Origin: Puniceicoccus vermicola
Lineage (GTDB): Bacteria > Verrucomicrobiota > Verrucomicrobiia > Opitutales > Puniceicoccaceae
Length of the DNA: 64,000 bases
Assembly (NCBI RefSeq): GCF_014230055.1
Contig: NZ_JACHVA010000033.1
Coordinates: 1-64,000, forward strand
Direction: 5' to 3'
Position 1 is the stretch's first letter, and each line of letters starts with the position of its first letter. Shown here one piece after another: positions 1 to 47,724 of this stretch. The notes beneath the pieces were generated by a model. It did not search any database. It saw only the letters and a program-made list of their open reading frames with translations, and had not been told where the DNA came from. Position numbers and translations under genes: made by a program.

Positions 1-738
1 AGGCGCATAATGGGTCCATCCCTCTTCTGCCACACATCTCTCCCGACTCGCCACCGCATAAGTCGTTGTCGTCCTTCCGAAAAGGCCGTCCGTAGGGTCG
101 GTGCATCCGGAAACCTTGCTTCGTGTATAAGTCTCTTTTAGATAAGTCGTCACTTCCTCCGGCGGCTCACTGCCTTGAACAAAGAATGGGGTGAATCCCG
201 GGCACGGAATCGAAAAAGAAACTCGCTGATAGAGAATGTTCAACCCGTCCGGATCGATCAACTCGTCGACGGGTTCCAATTCTTCCAAATCGTTATCGAA
301 GAACACCGTGCACTCGTTCTCATTTTCGGCGCTGCTTTCGGAAAGAACAAAGCAGTCTTGGCAGTTATAATCCTCGTTCCAGCATCCCTTTCCCGGACAG
401 CATTCTTGGCCCTCTTCGCAGCCGTCGACCCATTCGCATTCTTCCTCGTCCCAAACCGAACACTCGTCCGGCGGATCTTCATCGGGTATCATAATCTCTC
501 CCTGGCAACAGACTTCATCCGGATCAGGCTCCACGCACTGCCCCTCTCCACATGCGTTATAATGATCCCATGAATCCTCGGCCTCCGGCGTATCAACCTC
601 CGTTCCGCAATTGTTCCTATAGGTCGGGGTGGACCCACAGCTCACCAACGAAGAAACCACTTCGTCCAGAACAAATTTCGCCGACCCGAAAAGGGGAAAC
701 GCGCCAACGCAGCAAACAATGAGAAAAATCTTATTCAT
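1..738 (-). CDS. cysteine-rich exported protein (partial, C-terminus beyond window)
   Basis: I do not recognise this protein. From ATG 738 the minus strand stays open for all 246 codons to the window edge, so the C-terminus is missing. It starts MNKIFLIVCCVGAFPLFGSA, a typical Sec signal peptide, so the protein should be exported. About 20 cysteines follow, many close together in a strongly acidic stretch (residues ~60-135, e.g. CCQGE, EECEW, ECCPGKGCW), as expected of a disulfide-rich secreted or surface domain. The ATG overlaps the stop of the upstream HEAT-like gene by 8 bases, so the two are probably translated together. No metal-site or protease motif is evident. Reading frame seen directly; secretion inferred. 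Confidence 0.72.
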   Translation of the reverse strand, partial: MNKIFLIVCCVGAFPLFGSAKFVLDEVVSSLVSCGSTPTYRNNCGTEVDTPEAEDSWDHYNACGEGQCVEPDPDEVCCQGEIMIPDEDPPDECSVWDEEECEWVDGCEEGQECCPGKGCWNEDYNCQDCFVLSESSAENENECTVFFDNDLEELEPVDELIDPDGLNILYQRVSFSIPCPGFTPFFVQGSEPPEEVTTYLKETYTRSKVSGCTDPTDGLFGRTTTTYAVASRERCVAEEGWTHYAP

Positions 739-39842: not shown

Positions 39843-42617
39843 CTAGGCTGTTTGTTTGGTTTTGCGGAGAGCCTCAGCACAACGCTCTGAGACCTCACCC
39901 CATTCATCCGTCTGAACAAGACTCGGCACCCAGCGCCAAGTGCGCGGACAACGCACACCATCAGCATGAGATGCTTCAACTGTCAATGAGCCTTCTCCAG
40001 CTTCCAATTCAACTGCAGAGACGATAAAGAACTCCGGAAGCCATTCCCGATAGGATTCAAGAAGTTTAAATTCATCACTTCCGGCGTCTCCCGAGATCTT
40101 CACCTTGGCGTCGAGGCTCGAGGCAATCTCCTTCTGCTTCCGCTTTTCTTCGAGCGCATCGTTCACATTCTCTGCCTTCCAGCGGAGAATTTTATCAACA
40201 TCGACTGCAGCTGCACTGTGAAGGAAGGCTGATGGCGCTTCCGGCCAACCCGCCAGCTGGACCGGCTTTCCCCCGTATTCCTGACCGTCATGCAGATAGG
40301 CGTACGATTCGTCGGCCGTGAAAGAGAGAATCGGATTCAGGATCCGGCAGAGGGAATCACAGATCCGGAAAAGAACGGTCTGCGAGGAGCGACGGCGGGC
40401 ATCATTCGGTGCCAGCGTATACAAGCGGTCCTTGAGGATATCGTGGTAACTGGCCGACAAGGTCTGCGCACAGAAACGACTGATTTCCTGATAGACGCGG
40501 TGGAACGCGAAGCACTCATAGGCATCGTCCACAGTCTCAATCAATTCCGCGAGGCGGGCGAGAGCCCACTGATCGAGCGGATCCAGATCCTCGTCAGCGA
40601 CAGTATTCGTCTTCGGATCGAAATCGTAGAGATTCCCGATCTGGAAGCGCAGGGTGTTGCGGACATTCCGATAGGTCTGGGAAACGTTTTTGAGAATTTC
40701 CCCCGAGACCGGAATGTCATTGCGATAATCCTCGGAGCTGATCCAGAGGCGGACGATGTCGGCGCCAAATTCCTGAACAAAGCTGTCCGCGGTCTGCGGT
40801 TTGCCATCGCTCTTGGAAATTTTCCGTCCATCCTGCCCGACGACAAACCCGTGGGTGAGAATTTTCTTATAGGGTGGCTGCCCATCGGCAATCATCCCTG
40901 TCCAAAGCGAAGACTGGAACCATCCGCGATGCTGATCGCTTCCCTCGATATAGAGGTCCGCCGGCCAGGACATGTCCCGCTGCTTCAGAACTGCACGGTG
41001 ACTGCAGCCGGAATCGATCCAGACATCCAACGTATCGGTGCCGGGCCGCAGGGCCTCGGGACTCCATCCCTCAGGGAGGTCGATTCCTTCCAAGAGCTCG
41101 GAAGCCGAATGCTGGAACCAGAGACTGCACCCTTCGGATTCAACCTTATCGGCAAGGCCACGGATCACCGCGGGATCGATGAAGGCTTCCCCATCCTCAT
41201 TGAAGAAGGCCGGGATCGGCACGCCCCAGGTCCGTTGGCGGCTGATGCACCAGTCGGGGCGGGATTCCACCGCACCACGGATGCGGTTCTCTCCCCAAGT
41301 CGGCTCCCACTTGACGGACCCGATCGCTTCGAGGGCTCTCTCGCGGAGTCCACCCTTGTCGAGCGAGACAAACCACTGGTCCATCGCCCGGAAAACGACC
41401 GGAGTCTTGGACCGCCAGCAATGAGGATAGGAGTGAACGTAGGGCTCTTTAGCGAGCAGCACGCCCTTCTCTTTTAAAATCTCCAAGACAGCACTGTTGG
41501 CCGGCGACTTTCCTTTTTTCTCAAGAACGGAGAGCCCGACCAGATCTGCTGGCACCCGACCATCATCGACGTAGCAGCCGTTGTCATCCAGCGGGCAATA
41601 AATCTCCAGGCCGTTCTGGAGGCCGGAAACATAGTCGTCGATCCCGTGCCCAGGAGCGGTGTGGACGCACCCCGTTCCGGTCGTGGCCGTGACATATTCA
41701 GCGGCGATGATGGGCGATGGGCGGTCGATAAATGGATGGCGAGCCTCGCGTCCGGCAAACTCGGCCCCGTCGATCGTTTCTTCAATCGAGTAATCGGTGA
41801 GAGCGCACTTCTCGGCAACCTCTTCGACGCGGGTTTCCGCGATCCAGTAAGCATGTCCTCCGGAGACGACCTTCGCGTAGCGGAGTCGAGGGTGCACCGC
41901 GACCGCCAGGTTGGCCGGCAAAGTCCAGGGGGTCGTCGTCCAGATCACTACCGATTCGGCCTCTCCCAGCGGGAATGCGACATAGATCGAGGGGCTCGTG
42001 TGCTCCTGGTATTCGATCTCCGCCTCCGCAAGAGCGGTCTGGCAGGGAATCGACCAATATACCGGCTTCTTGCTGCGGTAGACGAGATCGTTGGCGACAA
42101 ACTCCGCAAAGGTCCGAAGGATAGCTGCCTCGTAATTCGGATTCATCGTCCGATACTCGTGCTCCCAATCGGCCTGAACCCCCAGGCGCTCAAACTGCCC
42201 GCGCTGTTTTTCGATAAAGCTCTTGCTGAACTCCTCGCACGCCTTGCGCATTTCGACCGGAGTCAACTCGCGACCCTCGTCCTTCATCTGGCGGGCGACC
42301 TTGTGCTCGATCGGCAGACCGTGGCAATCCCAGCCTGGGATGTAGGGGGAACGGCGGCCCTTCATCGACTGGAATCGGACGATCGTATCCTTCAGGATCT
42401 TGTTGAGGGCGGTGCCGATATGGACGTCTCCGTTGGTGAACGGAGGACCGTCGTGGAGAAGGAATTCTTCTTCGGAGGCGGCGTTCGACTCCTGCATCCT
42501 TCCGTACAAATCGATCTTTTTCCAGTGTTGGATTCGTTCCGGCTCACGCTTGACGAGACCAGCTCGCATGGGAAAGTCGGTTTTAGGAAGGTTTAGCGTA
42601 TCTTTGAGGGAATTCAC
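39843..42617 (-). CDS. ileS: isoleucyl-tRNA synthetase
   Basis: Charges tRNA-Ile and edits valine. Class I motifs: HIGH-like PFTNGDVHIGTALNK (~residue 58) and KMSKS-like DGRKISKSDGKP (~605), with the editing domain between (TATTGTGCVHTAPGHGIDDY, ~305). Length 924 is that of the bacterial form. The C-terminal zinc site, normally C-x2-C...C-x2-C, reads CPRT (C890, T893) and CAEA (C913, A916), so two of four cysteines are missing. Translation starts at GTG 42617. It heads the ileS, dksA-like, lspA, SpoU-methyltransferase operon. Confidence 0.97.
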   Translation of the reverse strand: MNSLKDTLNLPKTDFPMRAGLVKREPERIQHWKKIDLYGRMQESNAASEEEFLLHDGPPFTNGDVHIGTALNKILKDTIVRFQSMKGRRSPYIPGWDCHGLPIEHKVARQMKDEGRELTPVEMRKACEEFSKSFIEKQRGQFERLGVQADWEHEYRTMNPNYEAAILRTFAEFVANDLVYRSKKPVYWSIPCQTALAEAEIEYQEHTSPSIYVAFPLGEAESVVIWTTTPWTLPANLAVAVHPRLRYAKVVSGGHAYWIAETRVEEVAEKCALTDYSIEETIDGAEFAGREARHPFIDRPSPIIAAEYVTATTGTGCVHTAPGHGIDDYVSGLQNGLEIYCPLDDNGCYVDDGRVPADLVGLSVLEKKGKSPANSAVLEILKEKGVLLAKEPYVHSYPHCWRSKTPVVFRAMDQWFVSLDKGGLRERALEAIGSVKWEPTWGENRIRGAVESRPDWCISRQRTWGVPIPAFFNEDGEAFIDPAVIRGLADKVESEGCSLWFQHSASELLEGIDLPEGWSPEALRPGTDTLDVWIDSGCSHRAVLKQRDMSWPADLYIEGSDQHRGWFQSSLWTGMIADGQPPYKKILTHGFVVGQDGRKISKSDGKPQTADSFVQEFGADIVRLWISSEDYRNDIPVSGEILKNVSQTYRNVRNTLRFQIGNLYDFDPKTNTVADEDLDPLDQWALARLAELIETVDDAYECFAFHRVYQEISRFCAQTLSASYHDILKDRLYTLAPNDARRRSSQTVLFRICDSLCRILNPILSFTADESYAYLHDGQEYGGKPVQLAGWPEAPSAFLHSAAAVDVDKILRWKAENVNDALEEKRKQKEIASSLDAKVKISGDAGSDEFKLLESYREWLPEFFIVSAVELEAGEGSLTVEASHADGVRCPRTWRWVPSLVQTDEWGEVSERCAEALRKTKQTA

Positions 42618-42766
42618 GGTCCACTTGGTTCGGGCGAAAGGCGCGAGAGTTTGGAGCTTTCGGGTTCGCAGTCAAGGTCGCGCTTTCGATAAGGGTCACA
42701 TTCCGTCTTGCAGAATCTCTTGCTTTCATGGTCTGGCTCAGGAACGATGAGCCCTCTTTCTCACAC

Positions 42767-43813
42767 ATGACCACCTTATCTGCCGTCATCAACGTCGCCA
42801 ACCTTCCCGGATTGGTTCTCGCCCTTATTATCATCGGAGGCCTCTGCTTCCTCATGGTAGGCGGAGACTGGCTTTGTCGCGGCTCCGCCAGTTTGGCGAT
42901 CCGGCTGAACGTGGCTCCCGTGGTCGTCGGCCTCACCGTCGTCTCGATCGCCACCTCCACCCCGGAACTTTTTACCGCCCTCGTCGGAGTCGTCCGCGAC
43001 CAGCCCGGCCTTGCGATCGGAAACGTCCTCGGCAGCAACGCGGCCAACATGGGGCTAATTCTCGGAGCGGCAGCCCTCATCACCCCCATCAGCGTCCACT
43101 ACCGGTTGATCCGCTGGGAAATTCCCATTCTTCTTGGGGTCACCGTTCTTTTCGCCGTTCTGGTCTACCTCGGTTCGGGGATCACCCGGGTCGGAGGAAT
43201 CATCCTCCTCTGCGTAACGGCGGGCTACCTCATCTTCATCGTTCAGACCTCGAAAGGCTCTCGGATTGAGAAAGAGATCGAAGAAGAGATCCCCTCACCG
43301 ATCCAGAGCATCTGGCTCTGCGCCGGCCTAATTGTCGTCGGAACCTTTTTTCTTTGGCTCGGAGCCGACCTCTTGGTCGATGCGGCCACGGAATCTGCCC
43401 TCCGCATGGGAGTGAGCGAAACCCTCGTCGGGATCACCGTCGTCGCGATCGGCACCAGCCTCCCCGAGCTCGGAGCGACTATCGCAGCCGCCGTCCGCAA
43501 GCAGAGCGGTATCATCGTCGGCAATATCATCGGCTCGAATCTTTTTAATCTCATGCTGATTTGCGGAGTCGTCGGAACTGCGCTTCCCTTCCCGGTCGAC
43601 CCAATGCTCATGCGACTCGAGATACCAATGCTGATCGTCTTCACCGGGATATTTGCCTGGTTTGTGGTCTCTCAGCGCAAAGTTTCCCGTATGGAAGGAG
43701 GGCTCCTCATCGCTCTCTACGCCGCCTTTATCATTTTCTCCAGTGTTTCGCAGACCGGCGGATTCGAGGCCGCGGCCAACGAAGTCGAATCTGCCATTGA
43801 AGCTCTTCCCTAA
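42767..43813 (+). CDS. calcium/sodium exchanger (YrbG/CaxA family)
   Basis: An inner-membrane antiporter with two inverted repeats of five helices. Each repeat has the alpha motif: VGLTVVSIATSTPELFTALVG (~residue 48) and VGITVVAIGTSLPELGATIAAAV (~220), the signature of K+-independent or K+-dependent Na+/Ca2+ exchangers. The loop between them is acidic (KEIEEEIPS, ~165). ATG 42767 gives a normal first helix. The stop overlaps the S55 gene by TAATG, so the two are coupled. Cation specificity is not certain. Confidence 0.92.
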   Translation: MTTLSAVINVANLPGLVLALIIIGGLCFLMVGGDWLCRGSASLAIRLNVAPVVVGLTVVSIATSTPELFTALVGVVRDQPGLAIGNVLGSNAANMGLILGAAALITPISVHYRLIRWEIPILLGVTVLFAVLVYLGSGITRVGGIILLCVTAGYLIFIVQTSKGSRIEKEIEEEIPSPIQSIWLCAGLIVVGTFFLWLGADLLVDAATESALRMGVSETLVGITVVAIGTSLPELGATIAAAVRKQSGIIVGNIIGSNLFNLMLICGVVGTALPFPVDPMLMRLEIPMLIVFTGIFAWFVVSQRKVSRMEGGLLIALYAAFIIFSSVSQTGGFEAAANEVESAIEALP

Positions 43814-45579
43814 TGACCCGGAAACTCTCTCTCCTATTCCTGCTACTGGCGGTCGCCGCTAGTCTCACCCAAACCTACGCCGAAGAGACCATCCCTCTCG
43901 AGGAAATCCAACCCGGCGATTCGGGAGAATGGAGAACCGTGGTTTCCGGATCGGAGGTCGAAAGCTTCCCGCTCACCGTCGTGGGCATTCTCGACTCCTT
44001 CGCGGGCGCGGGTGTCCCCGTCATCCTCTGTCGGGCCAGTGATTCGATCAATACCGCCACCGGACCCGTCTCCGGAATGAGCGGCAGCCCCGTCTACATC
44101 AAGGGCCGCCTAGCGGGAGCCTACGCCTACGGATTCCCATGGTCCAAGGATAAGACCCTCATCGGGGTCACGCCCATCGGAAAGATGGAGCCCCTCTTCA
44201 ACTACCCCGACATCCCCTATCGCGACGCTCTCAACGCCCCCATCGCGAACTCGGAAACAACCGCGTCCCTCGGTCTTCCCAACAATTTTGCCTCCATCCG
44301 GACCAGCACGGAATCCACCACCTCGCCGCGTCCCCTTCCGATTCCCCTACTCGCCTCCGGGATCTCGGCGAAGACCCTCGATGCGATTCAGCCCTGGCTT
44401 GAAAAGAATAATCTCTTCGTCACGGCCGGCGCCGGAGGGCGCACCCAGAAAACCGACGCCGACTTCGAAGCGGGCTCCCCCCTCGCTGTAATTTTGGCCT
44501 CGGGGGATCTCACCCTCGGCGGGGTCGGCACGATCACCCGCCGCGAAGGAGACCGCGTCATCGCCTTTGGCCACCCGATGCTCAGCGCCGGCTCTGTGGA
44601 GCTTCCCATCGGCAGCGCGGAGGTCGTCGATGTCGTCTCGAGCTATCGCATTAGTTTTAAACTTTCCAATATCGGGGAAGTCGCCGGAACTCTCTGGCAA
44701 GACAGCACCACTGGAATCCAGGCTGAGCTGGGCCGGATCCCCTACATGATCCCGATCACGATCCATTCGGACGCTGCGATCAAGAATCCGATCGAGGGCA
44801 AGTTGGCGGAACACCGCGATCTCACTCCTTCGATGGCGCTCACCTATGCCGCCGAGGGAATCCTAACATCCCGCGAGGGACCCGACGAAGCAACCGTCCG
44901 CGGCCAGCTTTCTATCGATATCGACGGCTACGACGAGCCACTCGAGTTCTCCCGCGTCGGCGTTGGCTTCACTGGAGCCATCGATCTGCTCTTCACCTTT
45001 TCCGACTACCTCAACGCCGTAGTCAAAGGCTCTCAGGAATTCCCCCGCCTCAAAAATATCTCCTACGATTTCAAAACGGAGAACGAAGAAAAAAGGCAGC
45101 TTCTCCACAGCATCCGCCTCGAGAGCTCCCGCATTCAGGCCGACAAACCCGTCGAGCTGACCATCGTCACCCGCAAGCGAAACGGCGAGCTCGCCCACCA
45201 CACCGTCGAAGTCCCCCTCCCCGACGCCCCCGACGGCTCCTCTTTTTCCCTATTCGTCGCCGATGCGGACACTCTGCGCTCCTTCGACCAGATTGCCACC
45301 TACAACCCGACCCGCTCCCTAGACCAACTCATCACGGAGCTACGGCAGATCAAGGACAACGGATCGATCTATGTGCAGCTCCTCCGCCCTTCTCCCGGCC
45401 TCCGCCTCGACGGACGCAACCTCGAGGAACTCCCACCGTCAGTCCTCCGACTTTATCAATCTTCACTTGAGAAACCCGGCGAAAAGATGCTCAGGGAAAG
45501 CATCGTCTGGGAAACCGCCATTCCCGTGCCGGGAGAATTCTCCGGCAGCTCCCGCATCCAATTTACCACGGAACCCTAA
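43813..45579 (+). CDS. exported SpoIVB-type (S55) peptidase-domain protein
   Basis: A 588-residue exported protein (signal RKLSLLFLLLAVAASLTQTYA). The S55 serine motif TGPVSGMSGSPVYIKGRL is at ~84-100 (likely nucleophile Ser90) and a second motif RVIAFGHPMLSAG (~249-260) carries the His. In SpoIVB the His precedes the Ser, so the order here is reversed. After ~300 the chain is a beta-rich C-terminal region. In sporulating Firmicutes SpoIVB signals to an intramembrane protease; here, in a Gram-negative without sporulation genes in view, a periplasmic processing or sensing role is inference. It overlaps the exchanger gene and lies three bases from the beta-propeller gene. Confidence 0.82.
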   Translation: MTRKLSLLFLLLAVAASLTQTYAEETIPLEEIQPGDSGEWRTVVSGSEVESFPLTVVGILDSFAGAGVPVILCRASDSINTATGPVSGMSGSPVYIKGRLAGAYAYGFPWSKDKTLIGVTPIGKMEPLFNYPDIPYRDALNAPIANSETTASLGLPNNFASIRTSTESTTSPRPLPIPLLASGISAKTLDAIQPWLEKNNLFVTAGAGGRTQKTDADFEAGSPLAVILASGDLTLGGVGTITRREGDRVIAFGHPMLSAGSVELPIGSAEVVDVVSSYRISFKLSNIGEVAGTLWQDSTTGIQAELGRIPYMIPITIHSDAAIKNPIEGKLAEHRDLTPSMALTYAAEGILTSREGPDEATVRGQLSIDIDGYDEPLEFSRVGVGFTGAIDLLFTFSDYLNAVVKGSQEFPRLKNISYDFKTENEEKRQLLHSIRLESSRIQADKPVELTIVTRKRNGELAHHTVEVPLPDAPDGSSFSLFVADADTLRSFDQIATYNPTRSLDQLITELRQIKDNGSIYVQLLRPSPGLRLDGRNLEELPPSVLRLYQSSLEKPGEKMLRESIVWETAIPVPGEFSGSSRIQFTTEP

Positions 45580-45582
45580 ACC

Positions 45583-47724
45583 ATGAAGCGAAGCTTTTTA
45601 CTCTCCTTCCTCCTCTCATCGACCAGCCTCTTCGGCGTCAAGACTGACAGCCACGTCTTCGAGGGGTATCCGACACTCTCCGACGGAGAGCTGCAGGGAG
45701 TCGCCGTTCACTGGGACGGAGGCATCGGGGTCGGTCCCTCGCTCGACGAAGGCATCCGCCCACCCCAAGGAGCAGTTATTTGGGATCTCGCCCAAACGGA
45801 AGACGGATTCCTATACATCGCTACCGGCGGGCCCGGAGCCGTCTACAAGATGGAAATCGCGAGCGGCGAAATGAAGAAAGTTCTCGATCCGGACGAACCG
45901 CTTCTCCGCGCCATCCACGTCGACGCCGACGGAAACCTCTACGCGGGAACCTCTCCCGAAGGACGAGTCTACCGGGTCAATGCAGACGACGGATTTCCCG
46001 AAATCTACGCGGATCTTGAATCGCTCTACATCTGGTCGATCGAAGACGATCCGGAGAATGAAGGCGCTCTCCTGATCGCCGCTGGCGCCCCCGGGCGTAT
46101 CTATCGCCTGCCGAAGGACTTCGCCCCAGGCGACGAGCCCGAGATCGTTCTGGATACGAACGCCGTCCACGTCTCGACCTTCGCCTTTTCTCCCGACGGG
46201 ACACTCTACTACGCCACCGGCCCCGGAGGCCACCTTCTCCGAAAACGCTCTGGCGGAAAACCGGAAACTCTCGTCGAACTTGGACAGGGCGAAGTGCGGG
46301 AGATCTTCCCCAAAGACGACGGCAGCGTCCGCATCGCCGTCTATCGCTCCGACAGTTCCGACACGAGTTCCAGTTCCAACTCAAGCGACAATGATAGCGA
46401 CAGCGCCTCCCCAGATGGACTGCCCTCGGGGATCTTCGACGTCGGCTCAGACGGTTTTGTCGAGATTCTCCTCGCGGGCTCCGACGAGAAAATCTTCTCA
46501 GCCACTCTTCTCGACAACGAGCTCCTCATCGGCAGTGACTCGCGGGGCCGAGTCTACCGTTTCCAGGATCGGTTCGACTGGAGCCTACTCGCCGAGAGCG
46601 AAGACGGCGGTGAAGTTTCAAAAATTGAAGCCATCGATGACAAGAATGCCTGGGTCGCCACCAGCAATCCCGCCACCATTCATCGTCTCAGCTACGACCC
46701 GACCGCCAAGGGCGTCTTCATCAGCGAAGTTTACGACGCGGGCCAGAAAGTTCGCTGGGGAACTCTGATTCCCGTCGGCATTCAGCTGGATTCCATCCAG
46801 TGGGAAACCCGCACGGGCAACCGGAGCCGACCCGACGATTCGTGGAGCGAGTGGGAGGCACTGAAAGAACAAAAAGTCGCCAGCCAACCCGGACGGTTCT
46901 TTCAATATCGGGCCAACTTCGAAACTCCCGAGGCAGTCGTGAGACGCATCGAACTCTTCTACCAACTTCCCAACGAAGCCCCGATTTTCCGACGAGTGGA
47001 GGGCATTCCCCTTCGACTCGAAAGCCTTCCCATGCCGCCACAAGCTCCCCCGAGATCAACCCTACCACAACTCTTTAGCCAAAACGACAACGACAAGTCC
47101 TCCCCTTCAATGCCACAGCCATTTGTCATCCATGAAGACAGCGGCTGGCTCTCGATCGTCTGGGAGGCAGTCGACCCGAATGACGACGAGCTGCGCTACC
47201 GCGTCTATCTTCGTCGGCTCGACCAAGAGGACTGGTTCCTCCTCGCCGAAGACCTCAAGGATCCCTTTTTCTCGCTCAACATCGCCGGATTCGATCCTGG
47301 ATTTTACGAGCCCCGCATTCAGGCCAGCGATCGGATGAGCAATCCCCCCAACCTCGCCAAGACATCCGAGACGCGTGGCAACTTGATCCTCATCGACAAC
47401 CAACCGCCGACGATCATCCCGCCCACTCCCGAAAATCCTCTGCAGTTTACCGTCTCGGACAACTTCAGCATTATCTCGTCGGTCACCTTCCGCCTCGAAG
47501 GCTCGGAATCCCGGGCGCTCCTTCCCACCGACGGTATTTTCGACAGTAAGAAGAAAACATTCAAACTCCCCGAGGAAGCCCAAGAGCCAGGCGCCACCCT
47601 CCATATCGAAGCCGCCGACGCCCGTGGCAATCGTGCAGCTTGGACCGGACTGGTCACTGCCCCCGAGAAAACCGATTCCGCATCGGATGAGGAACCGAAG
47701 CCTGAATCCTCGCCCGCGAGCTAA
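45583..47724 (+). CDS. exported beta-propeller protein with Ser/Asp-rich insertion
   Basis: A 713-residue exported protein (signal MKRSFLLSFLLSSTSLFG). Residues ~60-380 hold repeats of propeller type, e.g. GFLYIATGGPGAVYKM, GNLYAGTSPEGRVYRV, LIAAGAPGRIYRL, LYYATGPGGHLLRK and LIGSDSRGRVYRF. A low-complexity Ser/Asp insertion (~255-280, SDTSSSSNSSDNDSDS) splits the repeats. After ~400 come beta-sandwich-like segments similar to fibronectin III (WDPNDDELRYRVYLRRLD type). No enzyme motif. Its three-base gap from the S55 gene suggests the two proteins act together, the propeller perhaps binding substrate or partner. Confidence 0.78.
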   Translation: MKRSFLLSFLLSSTSLFGVKTDSHVFEGYPTLSDGELQGVAVHWDGGIGVGPSLDEGIRPPQGAVIWDLAQTEDGFLYIATGGPGAVYKMEIASGEMKKVLDPDEPLLRAIHVDADGNLYAGTSPEGRVYRVNADDGFPEIYADLESLYIWSIEDDPENEGALLIAAGAPGRIYRLPKDFAPGDEPEIVLDTNAVHVSTFAFSPDGTLYYATGPGGHLLRKRSGGKPETLVELGQGEVREIFPKDDGSVRIAVYRSDSSDTSSSSNSSDNDSDSASPDGLPSGIFDVGSDGFVEILLAGSDEKIFSATLLDNELLIGSDSRGRVYRFQDRFDWSLLAESEDGGEVSKIEAIDDKNAWVATSNPATIHRLSYDPTAKGVFISEVYDAGQKVRWGTLIPVGIQLDSIQWETRTGNRSRPDDSWSEWEALKEQKVASQPGRFFQYRANFETPEAVVRRIELFYQLPNEAPIFRRVEGIPLRLESLPMPPQAPPRSTLPQLFSQNDNDKSSPSMPQPFVIHEDSGWLSIVWEAVDPNDDELRYRVYLRRLDQEDWFLLAEDLKDPFFSLNIAGFDPGFYEPRIQASDRMSNPPNLAKTSETRGNLILIDNQPPTIIPPTPENPLQFTVSDNFSIISSVTFRLEGSESRALLPTDGIFDSKKKTFKLPEEAQEPGATLHIEAADARGNRAAWTGLVTAPEKTDSASDEEPKPESSPAS

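What the first reader, a model, noticed from the sequence alone, without database searches (positions are those of the whole stretch)
43813..47724. S55-type protein with Ser motif before His motif, paired with a beta-propeller
GMSGSP at ~88-93 precedes GHP at ~253-255, the opposite of SpoIVB. This implies a circularly permuted protease or a repurposed domain. It is coupled by a one-base overlap to a Ca2+/Na+ exchanger and lies three bases before a large exported propeller. A periplasmic, calcium-dependent processing module is a possible reading.
Basis: partly seen in the sequence, partly recalled or inferred. Interest (0 to 1): 0.6.

Follow-up and report, generated by a model that had tools for sequence, protein, structure and literature searches.

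The report
Permuted secreted protease with propeller partner
A secreted bacterial protease related to the sporulation enzyme SpoIVB carries its two halves in swapped order, and it is inherited together with one particular propeller-shaped secreted protein across at least five bacterial phyla, which points to an undescribed two-protein protease system.

Summary
In detail: GMSGSP (residues 88-93) precedes FGHP (252-255) in a 588-aa exported protein (43813-45579) that overlaps a Na+/Ca2+ exchanger gene by one base and lies three bases before an exported propeller (45583-47724). The protein is a circular permutant of the SpoIVB (S55) protease domain. Its N-terminal barrel matches SpoIVB's C-terminal Ser barrel by sequence and fold. 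Its second barrel matches SpoIVB's His region (profile score 32 against at most 18.5 in 30 shuffles), and rejoining the halves in SpoIVB order gives one continuous match (115, controls at most 95). Ser90, His254 and Asp297 are invariant in 124-130 relatives. Every S55 hit sampled in Verrucomicrobiota, Myxococcota and KSB1 matched only the Ser half, as expected if all are permuted. The propeller gene is directly downstream in 91 of 93 distinct loci, mostly from four phyla. In a further phylum it can be unlinked, yet a full-length copy is usually still in the genome. The calcium link is not supported: the exchanger is adjacent only in the window's own family. I read this as a periplasmic or secreted serine protease working with a dedicated propeller partner. 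Substrate and activity are untested, and no model coordinates were available to measure the Ser-His distance.

The parts
42728..43813 (+). Na+/Ca2+ exchanger gene, overlaps the protease gene by one base; neighbour only, not part of the conserved module
   Evidence: PF01699 and TIGR00367; adjacent only in L001-L004
43813..45579 (+). permuted S55-type serine protease, 588 aa, with stop codon
43813..43884 (+). predicted signal peptide (about residues 1-24), by hydropathy only
   Evidence: sequence MTRKLSLLFLLLAVAASLTQTYA
43888..44232 (+). Ser barrel (residues 26-140), equivalent to SpoIVB's C-terminal barrel
   Evidence: VIA: model 23..136 to 9LNF 311..426, Z 6.8; DegQ 127..243, Z 8.7; hhalign E 6e-9
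44074..44091 (+). GMSGSP, putative nucleophile Ser90 at 44080-44082
   Evidence: 130/130 relatives
44338..44448 (+). short strand-helix-strand between the barrels (about residues 176-212)
   Evidence: models
44452..44787 (+). His barrel (residues 214-325), equivalent to SpoIVB's first barrel
   Evidence: model pLDDT 90.4
44569..44577 (+). GHP, putative catalytic His254 at 44572-44574
   Evidence: 124/124
44701..44703 (+). Asp297, putative third triad residue; Asn290 in B. subtilis SpoIVB
   Evidence: 124/124; alignment
44824..45576 (+). conserved C-terminal region (residues 338-588), fold not identified
45583..47724 (+). exported beta-propeller with Ig/FN3-like C-terminal part (the latter judged by eye), the conserved partner
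   Evidence: PF07494; pairing

Best explanation
The protein is an exported chymotrypsin-fold (PA clan) serine protease whose two barrels are in swapped order relative to SpoIVB: Ser barrel, flexible linker, His barrel, then a C-terminal region. Inferred: the barrels pack as in ordinary PA proteases, so that Ser90, His254 and Asp297 form the catalytic triad. It lacks the PDZ domain that regulates SpoIVB; the co-inherited exported propeller most likely does that job, as a sensor, substrate-recruiting subunit or inhibitor of the protease in the periplasm or at the cell surface. Shown by sequence: order, homology of both halves to S55, residue invariance, gene pairing and co-presence. Inferred: proteolytic activity, triad geometry, physical contact and the direction of regulation.
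For: Ser half: hmmsearch of A1 against PDB finds SpoIVB 9LNF (E 9.9e-6); VIA aligns model 23..136 to 9LNF 311..426. His half: hhalign A2 to four SpoIVBs, E 2.4e-5, SpoIVB profile columns 113-199. Order: rejoined halves give one match to PF05580 profile 14-192 for the window (28.2 bits; native order 25.0; reversed-His control 19.4) and 15-201 for KSB1 L070 (46.2, 42.3, 30.4); hhalign 115.1 joined, 94.5 native, 30 shuffled controls at most 95.0; His half alone 32.3, controls at most 18.5. Catalytic residues: Ser90 130/130, His254 and Asp297 124/124; His254 in the beta3-beta4 loop and Asp297 at the end of beta5. Partner: 91 of 93 distinct loci adjacent; all 26 protease-bearing genomes among 52 relatives have the propeller and 25 of 26 without the protease lack it; unlinked full-length propeller in G734, G736, G738, G740 and G052, and none in six protease-less genomes of the phylum of G054; pairwise identities of the two proteins correlate at r 0.94.
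Against: No coordinates were available, so the Ser90-His254-Asp297 geometry is not measured. The His-barrel model matches PA proteases only at Z up to 5.8, in the range the tool calls unspecific, and several rows align it to the second barrel rather than the first, so the fold search does not by itself identify it as barrel 1. No member has been assayed, as far as the papers searched show. G709 and G061 have the protease without a detectable full-length propeller.
Confidence: 0.7

Rival explanations
1. Pseudoprotease: the permuted S55 domain is a catalytically dead structural or binding module that works with the propeller.
For: No activity is known. SpoIVB itself shows an unusual triad in its crystal (PMC12502668).
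Against: Ser90, His254 and Asp297 are invariant across phyla; dead proteases usually lose them.
Confidence: 0.1
2. No permutation: a lone Ser barrel followed by an unrelated beta domain with a chance GH motif.
For: HMMER alone gives the His half a sub-zero score against B. subtilis SpoIVB, and the fold search is unspecific.
Against: Profile tests with shuffled or reversed controls, invariant FGH and Asp297, and the match to SpoIVB's GxxxxN290S region.
Confidence: 0.06
3. Calcium-dependent processing module of exchanger, protease and propeller.
For: One-base overlap with the exchanger in the window; exchanger also adjacent in three relatives.
Against: The exchanger is not next to the pair in the other lineages sampled.
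Confidence: 0.04
4. An active permuted protease, but the propeller is its substrate rather than its regulator: the protease matures or releases the propeller protein.
For: Same pairing and co-presence data.
Against: Nothing decisive; no cleavage site was sought.
Confidence: 0.25

Closest known systems
SpoIVB, MEROPS family S55 (PF05580, TIGR02860), PDB 9LNF
   Same: Both barrels are homologous by profile; GMSGSP and GH motifs; exported serine protease.
   Different: Barrel order swapped; no PDZ domain found; Asp297 where SpoIVBs have Asn or Ser; the position of SpoIVB Thr393 is nearly always Ala or Ser and that of Asp363 varies (Asp, Gly, His); extra C-terminal region; no sporulation context seen; paired with a propeller.
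HtrA/Deg proteases (PA clan, DegQ, DegS)
   Same: Ser barrel fold (Z up to 8.7); periplasmic proteases with a regulatory module.
   Different: Normal barrel order, PDZ domains in the same chain.
Periplasmic sensor part of hybrid two-component systems (Reg_prop repeats with Y_Y_Y domain; from general knowledge)
   Same: Reg_prop-type propeller followed by what looks like an Ig-like region.
   Different: No membrane segment or kinase part found; stands beside a protease gene.

Membership tests
S55 / SpoIVB (PF05580) | PF05580 score over the curated cut-off | tested here: inconclusive
   Window protein 21.8 bits, below 25; many relatives above it, on the Ser half only
S55 / SpoIVB (PF05580) | His region before Ser region in the chain | tested here: not met
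   Opposite order in the relatives examined
S55 / SpoIVB (PF05580) | Homology of both halves to SpoIVB | tested here: met
S55 / SpoIVB (PF05580) | PDZ domain in the chain | tested here: not met
   No PDZ model hit in Pfam at E up to 1; a degenerate remnant is not excluded
S55 / SpoIVB (PF05580) | Role in the sigma-K sporulation checkpoint | not tested
PA-clan serine protease | Two beta-barrels with Ser, His and Asp at the interface | tested here: inconclusive
   Ser barrel clear; His barrel unspecific Z 5.8; residues invariant; geometry not measured
PA-clan serine protease | Proteolytic activity | not testable with these tools
   needs bench work
Anti-phage defence protein | Match to a PADLOC model | tested here: not met
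   no family at E up to 0.01 for protease or propeller

The most novel reading that the evidence does not exclude
A natural circular permutation of the chymotrypsin fold, fixed across several phyla with an intact Ser-His-Asp triad, working as a dedicated two-protein protease-propeller system that no paper in the library searched describes; most S55 annotations outside spore formers would then belong to it.
Probability: 0.6. Interest if true: 0.75.

Novelty: new variant of a known kind. Interest (0 to 1): 0.62.

Why it matters
Swapping the two barrels of a chymotrypsin-fold protease would show that this fold tolerates permutation in nature; I found no described case in the papers searched. Proteins matching S55 in non-sporulating phyla should not be read as sporulation proteins. 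The invariant Asp297 at the place where SpoIVBs have Asn or Ser bears on the open question of SpoIVB's third catalytic residue (PMC12502668 found Asp363 about 24 A from His236 and proposed Thr393). The propeller gives a concrete, testable partner for an uncharacterised protease found in over a quarter of the Planctomycetota and Myxococcota genomes sampled.

Tried and rejected
Distance Ser90-His254: models returned no coordinates. Profile comparison of the His half with B. subtilis SpoIVB alone was weak (hhalign probability 1%, P 0.05). TIGR02860 extended over both halves only for the Myxococcota member (profile 200-398), not for the window protein. Viral contigs held no SpoIVB relative. Neighbour survey by eye and with Pfam on selected genes found no third gene conserved across phyla; KSB1 alone adds a DHH/DHHA1 gene. 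Literature: no paper holds 'SpoIVB peptidase S55', and the papers found on circular permutation with chymotrypsin-like or trypsin-like proteases were, by title and abstract, about other subjects; most subscription journals are not in the library. In several VIA rows (DegQ, Deg2, Deg9) the aligned model range ends at 297-299; I did not interpret this.

Full report
What is there. The window lies in a genome whose closest named relative found is Opitutia bacterium UBA4506 (Verrucomicrobiota; 68% identity over the protease). ORF 43813-45579 encodes a 588-aa protein with a predicted signal peptide. Its Ser motif GMSGSP (88-93) precedes FGHP (252-255). The preceding Na+/Ca2+ exchanger gene overlaps it by one base, and an exported propeller gene starts three bases after its stop.

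Relatives. One protein search of 52 genomes, nearly all of the same order, found 26 with the protein. A scan of named genomes found it in Opitutales, Limisphaerales, KSB1, Myxococcota and Planctomycetota. Sampled phylum by phylum with the profile or the Pfam model it occurs in 56 of 188 Myxococcota, 51 of 199 Planctomycetota, 61 of 82 KSB1, 26 of 194 Verrucomicrobiota by the Pfam model, which misses the window's own copy, and 21 of 40 genomes of a further, unnamed phylum. It is usually single copy.

Permutation. In SpoIVB the His region comes first (His236) and Ser378 later. Here the N-terminal part aligns with SpoIVB's C-terminal barrel. The second barrel aligns with SpoIVB's His region, with His254 on His236 and, Asp297 on Asn290. 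Putting the His half in front of the Ser half turns the PF05580 match into one stretch over most of the profile in all five diverse members tested. Native-order constructs give the Ser half alone or two separate stretches, and reversed-His controls, run for three members, score lower. Profile-profile comparison with four SpoIVBs scored 115.1 for the rejoined order against 94.5 native, with 30 column-shuffled controls at most 95.0; the His half alone scored 32.3 against at most 18.5. In Verrucomicrobiota, Myxococcota and KSB1 every PF05580 match fell at profile position 92 or later, mostly in open frames of 590 aa or more, so I saw no S55 protein of normal order there.

Active site. Across 130 relatives Ser90 is invariant; His254, Asp297 and Lys283 are invariant in the 124 that reach that far. 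The 130 include some genomes twice. Bias to note: the loci were found with patterns one of which contains GMSGS, and L112-L131 through the Ser half, so Ser90 is partly selected for. His254 and Asp297 were not in any pattern, and relatives found by whole-protein search show the same. The models place His254 in the beta3-beta4 loop and Asp297 at the end of beta5, as His57 and Asp102 in chymotrypsin (general knowledge of that fold). SpoIVB's Asp363 aligns with residue 77, which varies, and its Thr393 with residue 105, which is nearly always Ala or Ser. The four SpoIVBs have Asn or Ser at the Asp297 position.

Structure. The whole model has pLDDT 81.6 and pTM 0.80; the His barrel alone 90.4 and 0.86. 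The matches of the His barrel are nearly all PA-clan proteases (top rows V8, Esp and Spl proteases) but with Z up to 5.8 only and partly on the second barrel; SpoIVB is Foldseek's second hit, at E 0.13. This supports a PA-type barrel without proving which one.

Partner. Of distinct loci with enough downstream sequence, the propeller is directly downstream in 48 of 48 Verrucomicrobiota, 14 of 14 Myxococcota, 19 of 19 Planctomycetota, 9 of 9 KSB1 and 1 of 3 others. In the unnamed phylum of G054, 9 of 14 further loci are adjacent; in four of the other five genomes, and in G052, a full-length propeller lies elsewhere in the genome, whereas six genomes of the G054 phylum without the protease have only weak partial matches or none. 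Within the 52 relatives the propeller occurs in all 26 protease genomes; of the 26 others one (G047) has a fragment. Pairwise identities correlate at 0.94, which shared ancestry alone could also give. The exchanger is adjacent only in the window's genus and family.

Mechanism. I infer an exported protease with an intact triad, in which the propeller replaces the in-chain PDZ domain as sensor, adaptor or inhibitor. Whether the propeller is instead a substrate cannot be told from sequence.

Noticed in passing
L144-L150, L070, L082: In KSB1 a gene of about 330-356 aa follows the propeller directly in all nine loci examined; the three checked against Pfam are DHH/DHHA1 phosphoesterases.
   Followed up: partly
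   Followed up: no
L152, L153, L154: Three plasmid records (Monoglobus, Subdoligranulum, Sedimentibacter) carry spoIVB, two of them next to spo0A; they may be chromosome pieces labelled as plasmids.
   Followed up: no
L171:825-2469: In G776 the protease is split between two frames near the linker between the barrels; a frameshift or a naturally split enzyme.
   Followed up: partly
G023:C1:1361943-1364144: Propeller match with one in-frame TAG, either an assembly error or a broken gene.
   Followed up: no
window 39843-42617: An isoleucyl-tRNA synthetase gene on the opposite strand lies upstream in several Opitutales relatives too (for example L036, L060).
   Followed up: no
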